From an uncultured Dokdonia sp. (lineage in GTDB: Bacteria; Bacteroidota; Bacteroidia; Flavobacteriales; Flavobacteriaceae), in the NCBI GenBank assembly GCA_947503305.1, contig CANNDF010000002.1:372001-436000 (forward strand): a stretch of 64,000 nt of DNA, in the 5' to 3' direction. Shown one piece after another: positions 31,151-37,759 of the stretch (the first letter of the stretch is position 1; every line of letters starts with the position of its first letter). The position numbers and the translations under genes are program-made. The notes below the pieces were generated by a model. That model had not been told where the DNA came from. It did no database searches and saw nothing but the letters and a program-made list of their open reading frames with translations.

Positions 31151-31420
31151 TTATTTTCTAATACCTAACTCCTTAATAATAGCACGGTATCTTAAAATGT
31201 CTTTCTTGATTAAATAATCAAGTAGTGAACGACGCTTACCTACTAATTTTACTAATGAACGCTCAGTATTATAATCTTTACGATTATTTTTTAAGTGCTC
31301 AGTTAAGTGATTGATACGGTGTGTAAACAATGCGATTTGCCCTTCAGCTGAACCAGTATCGTTTTTTCCTTTACCGTGTTTTTCGAAAATTTCTTCTTTA
31401 ACTTCTTTTGTTAAATACAT
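31151..31420 (-). CDS. rpsO: 30S ribosomal protein S15
   Basis: An 89-residue protein with the S15 signature (GSAEGQIALFTHRINHLTEHLKNNRKDYNTERSLVKLVGKRRSLLDYLIKKD). It binds 16S rRNA in the 30S platform. Length is standard for the family. A minus-strand TATCTTTG element at 31474-31481 matches the TAnnTTTG -7 consensus 53 bp upstream. The pnp gene follows on the same strand. Confidence 0.97.
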   Translation of the reverse strand: MYLTKEVKEEIFEKHGKGKNDTGSAEGQIALFTHRINHLTEHLKNNRKDYNTERSLVKLVGKRRSLLDYLIKKDILRYRAIIKELGIRK

Positions 31421-31473
31421 TCCAATATTATTTAAATGATTTTTATGTATATGATAGTTTATCTATCAGCGCG

Positions 31474-31481
31474 CAAAGATA
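31474..31481 (-). promoter_or_regulatory. Candidate rpsO promoter -7 element
   Basis: TATCTTTG on the minus strand is an exact TAnnTTTG match; no clear -33 TTG at the usual distance. Confidence 0.45.
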
Positions 31482-32440: not shown

Positions 32441-32477
32441 TAAAAAGCATCTTAGGGTATCTCTAAGGTGCTTTTTT
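32441..32477. terminator. Terminator between the lipoprotein gene and gldA
   Basis: Arms AAAAGCATCTTAG and CTAAGGTGCTTTT (one G-T pair) followed by a T-run. The right arm overlaps the gldA 3' end. Confidence 0.75.
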
Positions 32478-33371
32478 TGTTGAGGTAAGTTCTAAAAATA
32501 ATCCTTCTAGTGTGGCATTTTTTTGATTGAGTTGTAAGATTTTAAGCTCATTATCATGTGCAAAATCAAATACCTTAGCTCTCATATCTTCTTCAGTAGA
32601 AAAGGTAATCTCGTAGATAAAGTCGTGTGTGTTTTTTACTGAAGCAACTTTATCTAGTCGTTCTAGTGCAATGGTTTCTACACGATAGTCAAACTCTACA
32701 ATAATGATTTGCTGGTGTCCTGCTCGTAATTCACTTAAGTTCTTATCTGCAACTATTGTCCCTTTGTTTATAATGATTACACGATCACATATAGCTTCTA
32801 CTTCTTGCATTATATGAGTACTCATTAAAATTGTTTTTTCTTTGCCTATATCTTGTATGAGACTCCTTATTTCTAACAATTGTTTTGGGTCTAATCCAGT
32901 TGTAGGTTCGTCTAGGATTAATACTTCTGGATCGTGTAATAGTGCATTTGCAAGTCCCACACGCTGTCTATAACCTTTGGATAATTGGCCTATTTTTTTA
33001 TGAGATTCTGGTAGTAAGCCTGTAATGGTAATAATTTCTTGAACACGCTTTTTAGATACCTTATGAATACTCGCATTAAAATTTAAATATTCTCTAACAT
33101 ACATTTCCAGATACAGTGGATTATGTTCTGGTAAATATCCAACAGATTTTCGGACATTTTGAGGATCTAAAGCTGTGTCAAAGCCATAAACAATTGCTTG
33201 CCCTTCTGAAGGTAATAAGTAGGTTGTTAAGATTTTCATCATAGTGCTTTTTCCTGCCCCATTTGGACCGAGAAAACCTACAATTTCTCCTTTGTTTAAT
33301 GTAAAAGATACACCCTGAAGTGCATTCTGATTACCATATGTTTTTGTAATGTCTTTAACTATGATGGACAT
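32463..33371 (-). CDS. gldA: Gliding-motility ABC transporter ATP-binding protein GldA
   Basis: A 302-residue ABC ATPase with Walker A GPNGAGKST, signature LSKGYRQRVGLA, Walker B EVLILDEPTTGLDP and the H-loop STHIMQEVEAICDRV. The length, the C-terminal extension of about 80 residues and the presence in a flavobacterium match GldA, which works with GldF and GldG in gliding motility and surface protein biogenesis. gldF and gldG are not in the window. A minus-strand TAGATTTG element at 33387-33394 could be its promoter -7 box. Confidence 0.85.
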   Translation of the reverse strand: MSIIVKDITKTYGNQNALQGVSFTLNKGEIVGFLGPNGAGKSTMMKILTTYLLPSEGQAIVYGFDTALDPQNVRKSVGYLPEHNPLYLEMYVREYLNFNASIHKVSKKRVQEIITITGLLPESHKKIGQLSKGYRQRVGLANALLHDPEVLILDEPTTGLDPKQLLEIRSLIQDIGKEKTILMSTHIMQEVEAICDRVIIINKGTIVADKNLSELRAGHQQIIIVEFDYRVETIALERLDKVASVKNTHDFIYEITFSTEEDMRAKVFDFAHDNELKILQLNQKNATLEGLFLELTSTKKAP

Positions 33372-33546: not shown

Positions 33547-33576
33547 TTGATCGCCTTATTTTTTTTTCTACTTTTA
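33547..33576 (+). promoter_or_regulatory. Candidate promoter of the aromatic amino-acid operon
   Basis: TTG (33547-33549), 19 bp, TACTTTTA (33569-33576), close to the Bacteroidota TTG-N19-TAnnTTTG pattern with a final A for G. It would start transcription about 12 nt before the leader-peptide ATG. Confidence 0.5.
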
Positions 33577-33593
33577 CAACTTAACAATTCATA

Positions 33594-33668
33594 ATGTTAA
33601 CAAAGGTTTATTACTATAACAGCTATTTCTTTTTCTTCGGGCAGAAGAAAACAGGACGGTTGTGGTGA
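33594..33668 (+). CDS. Attenuator leader peptide rich in Tyr and Phe
   Basis: A 24-codon frame from ATG 33594 to TGA 33668. Its residues include Tyr at 6, 7, 8 and 11, Phe at 12-15 and Trp at 24, so nine of 24 codons specify aromatic residues. It lies directly upstream of a transcription terminator and of genes for phenylalanine and tyrosine synthesis. This is the layout of leader peptides in ribosome-mediated attenuation: scarcity of charged tRNA-Tyr or tRNA-Phe would stall the ribosome on codons 6-15. It was found by reading the leader; the aromatic run is very unlikely by chance. Confidence 0.85.
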   Translation: MLTKVYYYNSYFFFFGQKKTGRLW

Positions 33669-33722
33669 TAAATAACACTCAAAAACTCTAAAAGTCCTGA
33701 TTACCGATCAGGACTTTTTTTT
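33631..33722 (+). promoter_or_regulatory. Attenuator with antiterminator and intrinsic terminator
   Basis: The terminator stem has arms AAAAGTCCTGAT (33690-33701) and ATCAGGACTTTT (33707-33718), a 5-nt loop and a T8 tract ending at 33722, 40 bp before pheA. Upstream, CAGGAC (33652-33657) can pair with GTCCTG of the terminator's 5' arm, giving an antiterminator. TTTTCTTC over the Phe codons (33631-33638) can pair with GAAGAAAA (33644-33651), a competing hairpin next to CAGGAC. A ribosome stalled at Tyr/Phe codons would mask the first arm and favour readthrough. The pairings are visible; the switching is inferred. Confidence 0.75.
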
Positions 33723-33762: not shown

Positions 33763-34587
33763 ATGACAAAAAATGTAGCAATACAAGGAACTTTGGGGTC
33801 TTTCCATCATAAGGTGGCTCAGGAGTTTTTTACTCCAGAAATAAAGGTCGAGGAGTGTATGTCATTTCCAATATTGGCAGACTGTTTAGTTTCTGGTAAG
33901 GTGACAGATGCGGTTATGGCAATAGAAAATTCTATAGCGGGCGCTATTTTACCTAATTATGCCTTACTAGATCAATATAATCTAAATATTGAAGGAGAGT
34001 TTTATCTAGATGTTCATCATAATCTTATGGGTTTACAGGGCCAGAGTATAGACGATATAAATGAAGTATGGTCGCATCCCATGGCACATTTACAGTGCCG
34101 TAATTTTTTTAGAGATTATCCACATATTAAGCTTGTAGAAGATACGGATACTGCTGGGGTTGCCCGCGAGATTCAAAAAAGGAATTTAAAAGGTATAGGT
34201 GCCATTGCTAGTGTTACTGCTTCTGAGATCTATAATTTGGAAATTATTGCTCCTCAAATCCAAACTATAAAAGAGAATGCGACTCGCTTTTTTATTTTAA
34301 ATACAGATAAGAAAAGCATAAATGATAAGGTTGATAAGGCTTCTTTACGATTTACAACAGATCATAAACGAGGAAGTCTTGCTACTATTCTTAATGTAAT
34401 GAGTGATTTTAAGCTCAATTTGACAAAAATCCAATCAATGCCTATTATAGAAACTCCATGGAAATATGCTTTTTTTGTAGATGTCACTTTTGAAGCCTAT
34501 GAGGATTATATAAAAGCAAAGAAAGTCTTAACCATTATGGCGACAGATTTTAAAGTTTTAGGAGAATATAAAAATCGAAAAAAATGA
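33763..34587 (+). CDS. pheA: Prephenate dehydratase
   Basis: Converts prephenate to phenylpyruvate in phenylalanine synthesis. It has 274 residues: a PDT catalytic domain (about 1-185; IQGTLGSFHHKVAQEF, AVMAIENSIAGAILPNY, ENATRFFIL) and a C-terminal ACT domain (about 195-270; SLATILNVMSDFKLNLTKIQSMPI) for allosteric control by phenylalanine. There is no fused chorismate mutase; that activity is on the DAHP synthase three genes downstream. It is the first structural gene of the operon, 40 bp after the attenuator terminator, and overlaps the aminotransferase gene by 4 bp (ATGA). Confidence 0.95.
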   Translation: MTKNVAIQGTLGSFHHKVAQEFFTPEIKVEECMSFPILADCLVSGKVTDAVMAIENSIAGAILPNYALLDQYNLNIEGEFYLDVHHNLMGLQGQSIDDINEVWSHPMAHLQCRNFFRDYPHIKLVEDTDTAGVAREIQKRNLKGIGAIASVTASEIYNLEIIAPQIQTIKENATRFFILNTDKKSINDKVDKASLRFTTDHKRGSLATILNVMSDFKLNLTKIQSMPIIETPWKYAFFVDVTFEAYEDYIKAKKVLTIMATDFKVLGEYKNRKK

Positions 34588-35726
34588 TGCAACCTGCAGA
34601 TCGATTATTAGAAACAAAAGAATACTACTTTTCACGCAAGCTTAAAGAGGTTCGATCTCTTGCAATAGAAGGTCATCCTATAATTAATATGGGCATTGGA
34701 AGTCCAGATATGCCTGCTCCAGATGAGGTTGTTCATGCTTTAAAAGAAGGACTTGGTCATCCAAATACACATCAATATCAAAGTTATATAGGACTTCCAG
34801 AATTACGAGATGCTATTGCTCAATTTTATAAACAACACTATGGAGTATTAGTAAACCCACTTTCAGAAATATTACCATTAATGGGTTCTAAAGAAGGGAT
34901 CATGCACATTAGTATGGCCTTCTTGAATCCAGGAGATAAAGTGTTAATCCCTAATCCAGGATACCCTACATATAGCGCAGTAACAAAACTGGTTGAAGCA
35001 GTACCAGTGACTTATGACCTTGATGCAAATCATCAATGGCTACCCGATTTAGAGCAGTTGTCTAATCAGGATCTTACAGATGTAAAAATTATGTGGATAA
35101 ACTATCCACATATGCCTACTGGCGTAAATGCGGATACGTCGTTTTTTAAAAAACTAATAGCCTTTGCAAAAGCACATGCTATTTTAATTGTTAATGATAA
35201 TCCCTACAGTTTTGTTTTGAATGATCATCCTACATCAATATTAAATATTGAAGGTGCAAAGGAAGTAGCAATAGAATTGAATTCTTTGAGTAAAACCTTT
35301 AATATGGCAGGATGGCGCGTAGGGATGGTATTGGGCGATTCAGAATATATCGCTCATATTTTAAAAGTAAAATCGAATATGGATAGCGGGATGTTTTACG
35401 GGATCCAGAAAGGAGCTATTGCGGCATTACAAATGTCAAAAGAATGGTTTGAGAAGATAAATCTAGTATACAAAAGACGTAGAGATCTTATATATACACT
35501 AGCTCAGAAGTTAGATTGTAGCTTTACTCGTGATGGAGTTGGAATGTTTGTTTGGGCAAAACTACCTGAGGGTATACATGCAGAAAAATTTATAAATGAA
35601 ATTTTATACCAAAAATATGTTTTTATTACTCCAGGCACCATTTTTGGAACTCAAGGGGAGGGGTATATACGATTTAGTCTTTGTGTTACAGAAGACCAAA
35701 TACAGGAAGCGATTGATCGGTTTTAG
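34584..35726 (+). CDS. PLP-dependent aminotransferase (class I/II), probably aromatic
   Basis: A 380-residue fold-type I aminotransferase with INMGIGSPDMPAP near the N-terminus, the NPGYPTY segment, and the PLP lysine in SLSKTFNMAGWRVG. Position between pheA and tyrA, with a 4-bp overlap with pheA, implies the last transamination of phenylpyruvate and 4-hydroxyphenylpyruvate, or transamination of prephenate. Similar sequences also include LL-diaminopimelate aminotransferases, so the substrate is inferred from context. After its stop there is a copy of the GCTTTCGCGAAAGC palindrome and a 70-bp gap before tyrA. Confidence 0.85.
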   Translation: MMQPADRLLETKEYYFSRKLKEVRSLAIEGHPIINMGIGSPDMPAPDEVVHALKEGLGHPNTHQYQSYIGLPELRDAIAQFYKQHYGVLVNPLSEILPLMGSKEGIMHISMAFLNPGDKVLIPNPGYPTYSAVTKLVEAVPVTYDLDANHQWLPDLEQLSNQDLTDVKIMWINYPHMPTGVNADTSFFKKLIAFAKAHAILIVNDNPYSFVLNDHPTSILNIEGAKEVAIELNSLSKTFNMAGWRVGMVLGDSEYIAHILKVKSNMDSGMFYGIQKGAIAALQMSKEWFEKINLVYKRRRDLIYTLAQKLDCSFTRDGVGMFVWAKLPEGIHAEKFINEILYQKYVFITPGTIFGTQGEGYIRFSLCVTEDQIQEAIDRF

Positions 35727-35796: not shown

Positions 35797-36648
35797 ATGA
35801 AGAAAATATATATCATTGGTGTAGGGTTAATAGGAGGGTCTTTTGCAAAAGATCTTCGATCGCATATGCCTGATGCAACTATATTAGGAATAGATACAAA
35901 TCCAGAACATATTAATGAAGCTAAAGCTATAGGTTTTATTGATGAAGAAGGAGAATTATATGATCTTAAGAATGCAGATTTAGTAGTGCTATCTATACCT
36001 GTAGATATAGCAACACGTGTTTTGCCTGATGTGTTAGATCGTATAGGTGAAGAAACATTAGTGATTGATATGGGGTCTACAAAAGAGGCAATATGTAAAT
36101 GTGTGACGGATCATAAAATGCGTAGAAATTTTTTAGCCTGCCATCCTATTGCTGGGACAGAATTTTCTGGACCAAGTGCAGCTATTGATGGACTATATAG
36201 TGGAAAGACAAATATTATTTGTGAAGTAGAAAAAACGACATTTAAATTACAAGAGAAGGCTCTCGCTTTATTTACATCTATGGGTATGCGTATACGATAT
36301 ATGGACCCAGTATCTCATGACAAACATATTGCATATATGTCCCATCTATCCCATATAAGTTCTTTTATGTTAGGAAAAACGGTCATAGATAAAGAAAAAA
36401 ATGAACGAGATATTTTTGATATGGCAGGAAGTGGATTTGCGTCTACAGTACGACTAGCAAAAAGTAACCCTACCACATGGACCTCTATCTTCCAGCAGAA
36501 TAAAGAAAACATCTTAGAAACCCTTGAAGAATATATAGCAAATCTGGAACAATTTAAAAAACTGATGGAGACAGATAATTTTCAGGGAGTCTATCAGGAA
36601 ATGAAAAATACAAATCATATTAAAGAAATATTAAAAGGAATTAAATAA
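35797..36648 (+). CDS. tyrA: Prephenate dehydrogenase
   Basis: Oxidative decarboxylation of prephenate to 4-hydroxyphenylpyruvate for tyrosine. It has 283 residues with the Rossmann motif GVGLIGGSFAKDL at the N-terminus, the Asp of ILGIDTN for NAD(H) specificity, ACHPIAGTEFSGP, the catalytic-histidine region, and SHDKHIAYMSHLSHISSFML. There is no ACT domain, so feedback control probably rests on the attenuator and on other enzymes. It lies between the aminotransferase and the DAHP synthase/chorismate mutase genes. Confidence 0.93.
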   Translation: MKKIYIIGVGLIGGSFAKDLRSHMPDATILGIDTNPEHINEAKAIGFIDEEGELYDLKNADLVVLSIPVDIATRVLPDVLDRIGEETLVIDMGSTKEAICKCVTDHKMRRNFLACHPIAGTEFSGPSAAIDGLYSGKTNIICEVEKTTFKLQEKALALFTSMGMRIRYMDPVSHDKHIAYMSHLSHISSFMLGKTVIDKEKNERDIFDMAGSGFASTVRLAKSNPTTWTSIFQQNKENILETLEEYIANLEQFKKLMETDNFQGVYQEMKNTNHIKEILKGIK

Positions 36649-36676: not shown

Positions 36677-37759
36677 ATGGAAAATAAAAAAGAACTTAGA
36701 AATTGGTTAGATGCTTTTGGGTTAGATCACCCTTTAGTTATCGCAGGCCCTTGTAGTGCAGAGACAGAAGCGCAGGTACTCAAGATTGCTCATCAACTAA
36801 AAGATAGCGATGCTACTGTATTACGTGCTGGTATTTGGAAACCAAGGACACGTCCAGGTAATTTTGAAGGGGTTGGTGCTTTAGGGTTAAAATGGTTGCA
36901 AAAAGCCAAAGAAGAAACGGGAATGCTTACGACTACAGAGGTTGCAAATTCTCATCACGTAGAACTTGCATTAGAACATGATGTAGATATTCTATGGATA
37001 GGAGCTCGTACCACTGTTTCCCCTTTTATTGTACAAGATATTGCAGATGCTCTTAAAGGTACAGATAAGACAGTACTCATTAAGAACCCAGTGAATCCAG
37101 ATTTATCTTTGTGGTTAGGGGCAGTAGAGCGTTTTTATACAGCAGATGTTAAGAATCTGGGAGTAATTCATAGAGGTTTTTCTACTTATGAAAAAACGCG
37201 ATATAGAAACAATCCAGAATGGCAAATTGCTATTGATTTACAAAATCGCTTTCCAGATCTTCCATTAATTCTTGATCCATCTCATATTGCAGGACGTAGA
37301 GATATTATACATGATTTGAGTCAGACAGCGCTTGATCTTAATTATGATGGACTTATGGTAGAAACTCATCATGATCCTGATAATGCGTGGAGTGATGCTG
37401 CACAGCAAATTACCCCTGAGACTTTAATTCAGATGACAATTGACCTTAAAATACGAGAAGAAGAAGGTAAAGAAATTGAGTATAACAATAAATTGAATAC
37501 CCTACGTACACAAATTGATGTTGTAGATCATCAACTTATAGAAAGTCTTGGAAAACGTATGAAGATATCTGATGATATTGGATTACTTAAAAAAGAGAAT
37601 AATGTTTCTATACTTCAAACAAAACGATGGAATGAAATTCTAGGAAAGATGATTCTGGAAGGAGAACAACATAATCTAAGTGAAGAATTTATCTTGCGTG
37701 TATTTAAAGCGATACATCAAGAATCCATTAATCATCAGAAAAAAGTTGCTCAACTCTAA
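36677..37759 (+). CDS. aroF: Bifunctional DAHP synthase / chorismate mutase
   Basis: A 360-residue fusion. The N-terminal ~260 residues are a type I-beta DAHP synthase (LVIAGPCSAE, RAGIWKPRTRPGNFEG, LIKNPVNPD, ILDPSHIAGRR, DGLMVETHHDPDNAWSDA), catalysing the first shikimate-pathway step. Residues ~275-355 are an AroQ-type chorismate mutase (LRTQIDVVDHQLIESLGKRMKISDDIGLLKKEN). The order DAHP synthase then mutase is the one seen in other Bacteroidota, the reverse of Bacillus AroA. The mutase supplies the activity missing from this organism's PheA and TyrA. It is the last gene of the operon and ends in a strong terminator. Confidence 0.93.
   Translation: MENKKELRNWLDAFGLDHPLVIAGPCSAETEAQVLKIAHQLKDSDATVLRAGIWKPRTRPGNFEGVGALGLKWLQKAKEETGMLTTTEVANSHHVELALEHDVDILWIGARTTVSPFIVQDIADALKGTDKTVLIKNPVNPDLSLWLGAVERFYTADVKNLGVIHRGFSTYEKTRYRNNPEWQIAIDLQNRFPDLPLILDPSHIAGRRDIIHDLSQTALDLNYDGLMVETHHDPDNAWSDAAQQITPETLIQMTIDLKIREEEGKEIEYNNKLNTLRTQIDVVDHQLIESLGKRMKISDDIGLLKKENNVSILQTKRWNEILGKMILEGEQHNLSEEFILRVFKAIHQESINHQKKVAQL

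What the first reader, a model, noticed from the sequence alone, without database searches (positions are those of the whole stretch)
33547..33722. Ribosome-mediated attenuator controlling a Phe/Tyr biosynthesis operon
Seen directly: a 24-codon ORF with Tyr at 6, 7, 8, 11, Phe at 12-15 and Trp at 24; a 12-bp terminator with a T8 tract ending 40 bp before pheA; CAGGAC (33652-33657), able to pair with GTCCTG of the terminator; and a competing hairpin, TTTTCTTC with GAAGAAAA, located on the Phe codons. Known: this is the classical layout for attenuation of amino-acid operons in Proteobacteria. In Flavobacteriia the mechanism is far less documented, and coupling between transcription and translation there is not well tested. 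Inference: Tyr or Phe starvation stalls the ribosome at codons 6-15 and favours readthrough into pheA, the aminotransferase, tyrA and aroF.
Basis: partly seen in the sequence, partly recalled or inferred. Interest (0 to 1): 0.87.

Follow-up and report, generated by a model that had tools for sequence, protein, structure and literature searches.

The report
Aromatic leader-peptide attenuator before pheA
A short coding stretch full of tyrosine and phenylalanine codons, followed by an RNA stop signal, most likely lets the cell switch on its Phe/Tyr-making genes only when those amino acids run short; the principle is textbook, but its reach in this bacterial group looks wider than usually described.

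Summary
Window 33594-33668 encodes MLTKVYYYNSYFFFFGQKKTGRLW; an intrinsic terminator (33690-33722 with its T tract) ends 40 bp before pheA. Of 80 related loci, 79 have a Tyr/Phe-rich leader ORF upstream of pheA; the 80th contig starts inside the leader. In each of 78 aligned sequences a segment at or just past the end of the leader ORF can pair with the terminator's 5' arm, although the arm differs between lineages. Folding with a masked ribosome frees that segment when the ribosome stands on the aromatic codons. Outside the family, 20 of 38 examined pheA upstream regions of the same class carry such a leader. The same genome has leaders with His codons before hisG, Trp codons before trpE and Thr/Ile codons before thrA. 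This is classical ribosome-mediated attenuation. Prior art: a 2021 Flavobacterium psychrophilum transcriptome paper reports a structured 5' element before pheA, found in other genera, and clues for leader-peptide attenuation before amino-acid operons. Added here: the joint Tyr/Phe (often Trp) codon set, the matching antiterminator, the spread within the class and the sister leaders.

The parts
33547..33576 (+). promoter-like element (TTG ... TACTTTTA), Bacteroidota type; a transcript would start about 10 nt before the leader ATG (inferred)
   Evidence: pattern match in the window; same arrangement ending within 50 nt of the leader ATG in 60 of 77 sequences against 6% of mononucleotide shuffles. 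Consensus recalled; the pattern was loosened by eye after a stricter form matched 3 of 76.
33594..33668 (+). leader ORF MLTKVYYYNSYFFFFGQKKTGRLW; control codons Tyr 6, 7, 8, 11 and Phe 12-15
   Evidence: Tyr/Phe-rich counterpart in 79 of 80 related loci
33606..33673 (+). competing hairpin (1:2): outer stem 33606-33620/33659-33673, inner stem 33627-33638/33644-33651+33653-33656; sequesters the antiterminator segment
   Evidence: leader without terminator more stable than dinucleotide shuffles (mean z -2.85, 75 of 78 below -1) and than random synonymous recodings with uniform codon choice (mean z -2.14, 71 of 78 below -1). Column-wise covariation of the inner stem was not above control.
33652..33657 (+). 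antiterminator segment CAGGAC (region 2), inside the end of the leader ORF
   Evidence: pairs with GTCCTG 33694-33699; the corresponding hexamer pairs 6 of 6 in 68 of 78 and 5 of 6 in 10 of 78 sequences (site picked by pairing, controls)
33690..33722 (+). intrinsic terminator (regions 3:4) with T8
   Evidence: found in 78 of 78 aligned sequences; changes on both sides that keep the pair at 6 of 12 pairs
33763..34587 (+). pheA, prephenate dehydratase (first regulated gene)
   Evidence: below the NCBIfam cut-off; PF00800 over its cut-off
34584..35726 (+). PLP-dependent aminotransferase
   Evidence: best matches are LL-DAP and related aminotransferases, below cut-off
35797..36648 (+). tyrA, prephenate dehydrogenase
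   Evidence: over cut-off (NF006307)
36677..37759 (+). aroF-like DAHP synthase with C-terminal chorismate mutase part
   Evidence: matches below cut-offs; order pheA-AT-tyrA-aroF in 78 of 80 loci, the other two showing AT only or AT+tyrA

Best explanation
Ribosome-mediated transcription attenuation. The leader ORF is translated close behind RNA polymerase. With enough charged Tyr- and Phe-tRNA the ribosome reaches the stop codon and covers CAGGAC (33652-33657), so the terminator 33690-33722 forms and transcription stops. When charged Tyr- or Phe-tRNA is scarce, the ribosome stalls on codons 6-15, which breaks the hairpin that hides CAGGAC. CAGGAC then pairs with GTCCTG (33694-33699), the terminator cannot form, and pheA, the aminotransferase, tyrA and the DAHP synthase/chorismate mutase gene are transcribed. 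Without translation the hairpin forms and the terminator stays on. Shown: ORF, codons, terminator, alternative pairings and their conservation. Inferred: translation of the leader, coupling, termination in vivo, response to starvation.
For: Leader in 79 of 80 loci. All 78 aligned leaders have at least 3 Phe and at least 2 Tyr codons; 45 of 78 have Trp somewhere. Terminator 78 of 78. Antiterminator complementarity score: own 17.0; 13.8 over all swaps between loci and 10.9 for shuffled segments; 12.3 for 3964 swaps between different terminator cores. Stall simulation, 78 sequences: mean antiterminator probability 0.89 with the ribosome on F/Y/W codons (766), 0.47 on other codons (1098), 0.00 at the stop, the last by construction because the mask then covers the segment; in the window 0.99-1.00 on every Tyr/Phe codon and 0.01 with no ribosome. 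RNA structure more stable than synonymous recoding. Class level: 30 of 48 upstream regions have a leader with at least 7 aromatics in 10 residues, 0 of 48 on the reverse strand, 0.5% of Markov resamples; where a terminator was found, strong segment:arm pairing in 19 of 25 (12 of 15 outside the own family) against 3.6% of shuffles. Same genome: hisG leader with HHHH, trpE leader with WWW, thrA leader with Thr/Ile, the first two with a terminator and an alternative pairing.
Against: No expression data. On the MAFFT alignment the antiterminator columns are paired in 63.5% of cells, above all 500 shuffles but not above a one-column slide (64.3%); the aligner shifts the segment between lineages. 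The inner competing stem shows no column-wise covariation above control. On the PheA tree independent pairs on supported branches are 1, 1 and 2 for three columns, none going the other way, too few for a test. The simulation uses equilibrium folding and an assumed 14-nt ribosome edge; early non-aromatic codons give the antiterminator too, and the no-ribosome state is not closed in many relatives (mean 0.57) nor in the own hisG leader (0.86). Fewer than 6 aromatics in 15 of 48 class-level regions; no terminator found for 8 of 33 class-level leaders.
Confidence: 0.92

Rival explanations
1. The leader RNA binds a metabolite, tRNA or protein directly (riboswitch, T-box, TRAP-like) and the short ORF is incidental.
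For: The leader has strong structure outside the terminator.
Against: No Rfam family reaches its gathering score in this region. Below gathering, 26 weak matches were listed: the lowest E-value is drum on the minus strand (25.1 bits, gathering 43, E 0.0055); PyrR, Thr_leader and Phe_leader follow at E 0.16, 0.25 and 0.61, all well under gathering. What is conserved is the reading frame with its aromatic codons, while arm sequences drift. Sister operons carry the cognate codon instead.
Confidence: 0.04
2. The ORF makes a functional small protein (microprotein) and the terminator merely ends its gene.
For: The peptide is alignable across the family.
Against: Y, F and W interchange and the tail and stop position vary; folding is more stable than synonymous recodings; the peptide tail coincides with the antiterminator segment in most loci; leaders in other families keep the aromatic run and the pairing although arms often differ.
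Confidence: 0.03
3. General stall sensor: any slowing of translation in the leader gives readthrough, with little amino-acid specificity.
For: In the simulation, masks at early non-aromatic codons also free the antiterminator.
Against: Aromatic codons occupy the last positions that still free it (fraction 0.90-1.00 at -27 to -15 nt from the segment), and other operons of the genome use other codons.
Confidence: 0.05

Closest known systems
pheA (pheL) attenuator of enterobacteria, Rfam Phe_leader RF01859
   Same: leader ORF with Phe codons, competing hairpins, terminator before pheA (layout recalled)
   Different: Recalled: pheL carries Phe codons and no Tyr; here Tyr and Phe (often Trp) together, and the operon includes tyrA and a DAHP synthase gene. 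RF01859 scores 18.9 bits against a gathering score of 55, so it is not a member of that sequence family.
Structured 5' elements upstream of pheA and hisG in Flavobacteriaceae (ISME Commun. 2021, PMC9723704; passages read)
his, trp and thr operon attenuators of Proteobacteria (recalled)
   Same: cognate codon run plus alternative hairpins; seen here in the same genome before hisG and trpE, with a codon run alone checked before thrA
   Different: different phylum and sequences; common or separate origin was not tested

Membership tests
ribosome-mediated (leader-peptide) transcription attenuators | short ORF with codons cognate to the operon's product | tested here: met
ribosome-mediated (leader-peptide) transcription attenuators | intrinsic terminator between leader ORF and first gene | tested here: met
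ribosome-mediated (leader-peptide) transcription attenuators | antiterminator exclusive with the terminator and coupled to ribosome position | tested here: met
   (computed only; the column-wise test was inconclusive)
ribosome-mediated (leader-peptide) transcription attenuators | leader translated; readthrough rises on starvation for the cognate amino acid | not testable with these tools
   needs expression data
Rfam Phe_leader RF01859 | match at gathering score | tested here: not met
   18.9 bits against 55

The most novel reading that the evidence does not exclude
Leader-peptide attenuation is a general control of amino-acid operons in this bacterial class, and its pheA leader is a joint sensor for Tyr, Phe and in many species Trp. 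Because the leader ORF starts about 10 nt from a probable transcript end, ribosomes must enter it without a usual binding site and follow the polymerase closely, so transcription and translation would be tightly coupled in this group.
Probability: 0.6. Interest if true: 0.6.

Novelty: new member of a known kind. Interest (0 to 1): 0.4.

Why it matters
It gives a concrete, easily tested handle on whether RNA polymerase and ribosome are coupled in Bacteroidota. It extends classical attenuation to a joint Tyr/Phe leader found in many families of the class, with three sister leaders in one genome as built-in controls.

Tried and rejected
Column-wise covariation of the antiterminator on the MAFFT alignment is blurred by one-column shifts between lineages; I turned to per-sequence pairing with swap and shuffle controls. 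Inner competing stem by covariation: no signal. Tree-based independent pairs: too few events. A strict promoter pattern matched 3 of 76 upstream regions; a looser one, chosen after looking at the sequences, matched 60 of 77. ilvD: 8 loci examined (of 10 matches); one clear Ile/Leu/Val-rich leader (L225), two weak ones including the own genome, none in five, two of these being shorter loci whose anchor was estimated. trpE: 16 of 34 matches examined (the strong ones); 11 with WWW, one with WW, four without, all four being shorter loci where my anchor was probably off. hisG: 16 of 16 loci with at least 3 His (16 of 21 genomes had a hisG match). thrA: 3 of 4 fetched regions with a Thr/Ile-rich ORF; the gene start was estimated and no terminator was looked for. 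Other classes of the phylum: 30 of 103 pheA matches examined, the best-scoring ones, 28 of them from other classes and 15 of those 28 from one family; none of the 28 has more than 4 aromatics in 10 residues. This was measured from the start of the domain match, so proteins with a distant gene start are not fairly tested. One search was wrong for minus-strand loci and was redone. In one search, 110 of 149 genomes gave no PheA match and were not examined; (family model, 102 of 118) suggests that the protein search was insensitive.

Papers: PMC9723704, PMC2864571, PMC6429828 and PMC2965389 were read as passages only; other papers were seen in search listings. PMC2864571 lists a pheA motif, but for Actinobacteria. 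A 2004 FEMS paper by Vitreschak et al. was seen only as a reference entry; from recall its abstract already mentions attenuators in Bacteroidetes/Chlorobi. 'Leader peptide' + 'tyrosine codons' + 'attenuation' found no paper, 'ribosome-mediated attenuation' + 'Bacteroidetes' none; the other six searches brought up no closer paper than PMC9723704 by their listings. All within the held library only.

Full report
What is there. Window 33594-33668 is a 24-codon ORF, MLTKVYYYNSYFFFFGQKKTGRLW; 33690-33722 is a strong intrinsic terminator; pheA starts at 33763 and is followed on the same strand by an aminotransferase, tyrA and a DAHP synthase/chorismate mutase gene. The gene upstream (gldA, 32463-33371) is on the other strand, so the terminator does not end an upstream plus-strand gene. 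The coordinates in the finding check out. Among 813 ATG ORFs of 12-60 aa in the window, this is the only one with 8 F/Y in 10 residues.

Structure. Folded alone, the leader makes one long hairpin whose 5' side is the Tyr and Phe codons. The outer stem (33606-33620 / 33659-33673) holds Tyr codons 6-8 against the stop-codon region; the inner stem (33627-33638 / 33644-33651 + 33653-33656) holds the Phe codons against a purine stretch and AGGA of CAGGAC. CAGGAC is the best ungapped partner of the terminator's 5' arm in the stretch between the Phe run and the terminator. Phe codons, CAGGAC and the terminator thus form the chain 1:2, 2:3, 3:4 of a classical attenuator.

Relatives. One scan of species genomes kept the best 80 pheA loci (60-77% PheA identity; nearly all titled as Flavobacteriaceae genera, a few MAGs with broader or other titles). 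An aromatic leader ORF was found automatically in 77 and by eye in two more (L051 with a GTG start; L032 about 600 nt upstream, behind repeats). The last (L054) starts inside the leader and keeps the segment and terminator. The counts below use 78 sequences: the window and 77 loci, leaving out those three. Each has at least 3 Phe and at least 2 Tyr codons; 45 of 78 have Trp. A terminator was found in 78 of 78, with changes on both sides that keep the pair at six of twelve pairs. A segment at the end of the leader ORF (in a few loci just past its stop) follows the arm: GTCCTG with CAGGAC, GTTCTG with CAGAAC, GTCCCG with CGGGAC, GTCTCG with CGAGAC or CGAGGC, GTTCCG with CGGAAC, CGGAGC or CGGGAC, ATCCCG with CGGGAT; six of six pairs in 68 of 78 and five of six in 10 of 78 (site chosen by pairing). 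The pairing score is 17.0 against 13.8 for all swaps and 10.9 for shuffles and 12.3 for swaps between different cores.

Results that do not help. The column test of 2:3 pairing on the MAFFT alignment gives 63.5% paired cells: above every one of 500 shuffles, but no better than a one-column slide at 64.3%. The inner stem does not covary above control. On a PheA tree the arm core changes at least ten times, but independent pairs per column are 1, 1 and 2 on supported branches, too few for a test, though none contradicts.

Switch logic. Masking the RNA up to a ribosome (edge assumed 14 nt past the first base of the A-site codon) and folding the transcript before the last terminator arm exists gives, for the window, antiterminator probability 0.99-1.00 at every Tyr and Phe codon, 0.66 at Gly16, 0.00 from codon 17 to the stop, and 0.01 with no ribosome. 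Over 78 sequences the mean is 0.89 on F/Y/W codons, 0.47 on other codons and 0.00 at the stop, where the mask covers the segment by construction. The mean without ribosome is 0.57, so the closed ground state of the window is not general. The codons at -27 to -15 nt from the segment, the last positions that still free it, are aromatic in 90-100%. The fold is more stable than random synonymous recodings of the same peptides (71 of 78 with z below -1), so RNA structure, not only peptide, is kept.

Depth. I examined 48 further pheA upstream regions: 38 genomes matched other than the own one, and 10 more of the same class, order or family (fetched). Thirty have an ORF (ATG, GTG or TTG) with at least 7 aromatics in 10 residues: 10 of 10 in the own family and 20 of 38 outside; reverse strand 0 of 48, Markov resamples 0.5%. 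Three more have 6; 15 have fewer. Of the 33 with at least 6, the script found a terminator in 25, and in 19 of those (12 of 15 outside the own family) the leader end pairs strongly with its arm, against 3.6% of shuffles. Outside the family the paired segments are often longer and different, for instance GCCGGGA with TCCCGGC and AGGCGGGA with TCCCGCCT. In 28 loci from other classes of the phylum no comparable leader was seen, with the limits told under Tried and rejected.

Sister leaders in the same genome. Before hisG lies MKVTQIHHHHFTLVAQAW, before trpE MKNNTIHIWWWKAQQSLS, and about where expected before thrA MNTQSHIFIFSTIITSGTGTPMGL. The first two are followed by a terminator hairpin. In hisG the leader end (TCAAGCG) pairs with the terminator's 5' arm (CGTTTGA); in trpE it (GTCGTAAG) pairs with CTTACGAC, the loop of the terminator and its flanking bases. 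The simulation gives the alternative pairing with the ribosome on the His codons (0.99) or Trp codons (0.92-0.99) and none at the stop; with no ribosome it is 0.86 for hisG, so that leader is not closed by itself, and 0.07 for trpE. One genome thus uses one design with the codon matched to the pathway.

Initiation. A Bacteroidota-type promoter-like pair (TTG at 33547, TACTTTTA at 33569-33576) lies just before the leader; a loosened pattern ends within 50 nt of the leader start in 60 of 77 sequences against 6% of shuffles. The pattern was loosened after a strict form matched 3 of 76. If real, the 5' UTR is only about 10 nt.

Known or new. [quoted passage not shown] I file this as a new member of a known kind: mechanism textbook, element very probably already noticed, details (joint Tyr/Phe/Trp codon set, matching antiterminator, spread in the class, sister leaders) added here.

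Noticed in passing
window 31418-31481 (-): S15-Flavobacteria ribosomal protein leader (RF03161, 74.5 bits, E 2e-8), immediately upstream of an 89-aa ORF at 31151-31420 (-) that I take to be rpsO (name recalled, not searched).
   Followed up: no
L147, L161, L234 (own genome): Leader ORFs with cognate codon runs before hisG (HHHH), trpE (WWW) and thrA (Thr/Ile).
   Followed up: partly
L032, about 100-500 nt upstream of pheA: In Gelidibacter salicanalis repeats, each with a GC-rich hairpin (by eye), lie between the attenuator and pheA; Kordia loci L024, L027, L036, L049 and L070 also have long stretches (109-427 nt) there.
   Followed up: no
L105: Two aromatic-rich short ORFs upstream of pheA (at -342 and -180), possibly a double attenuator.
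   Followed up: no
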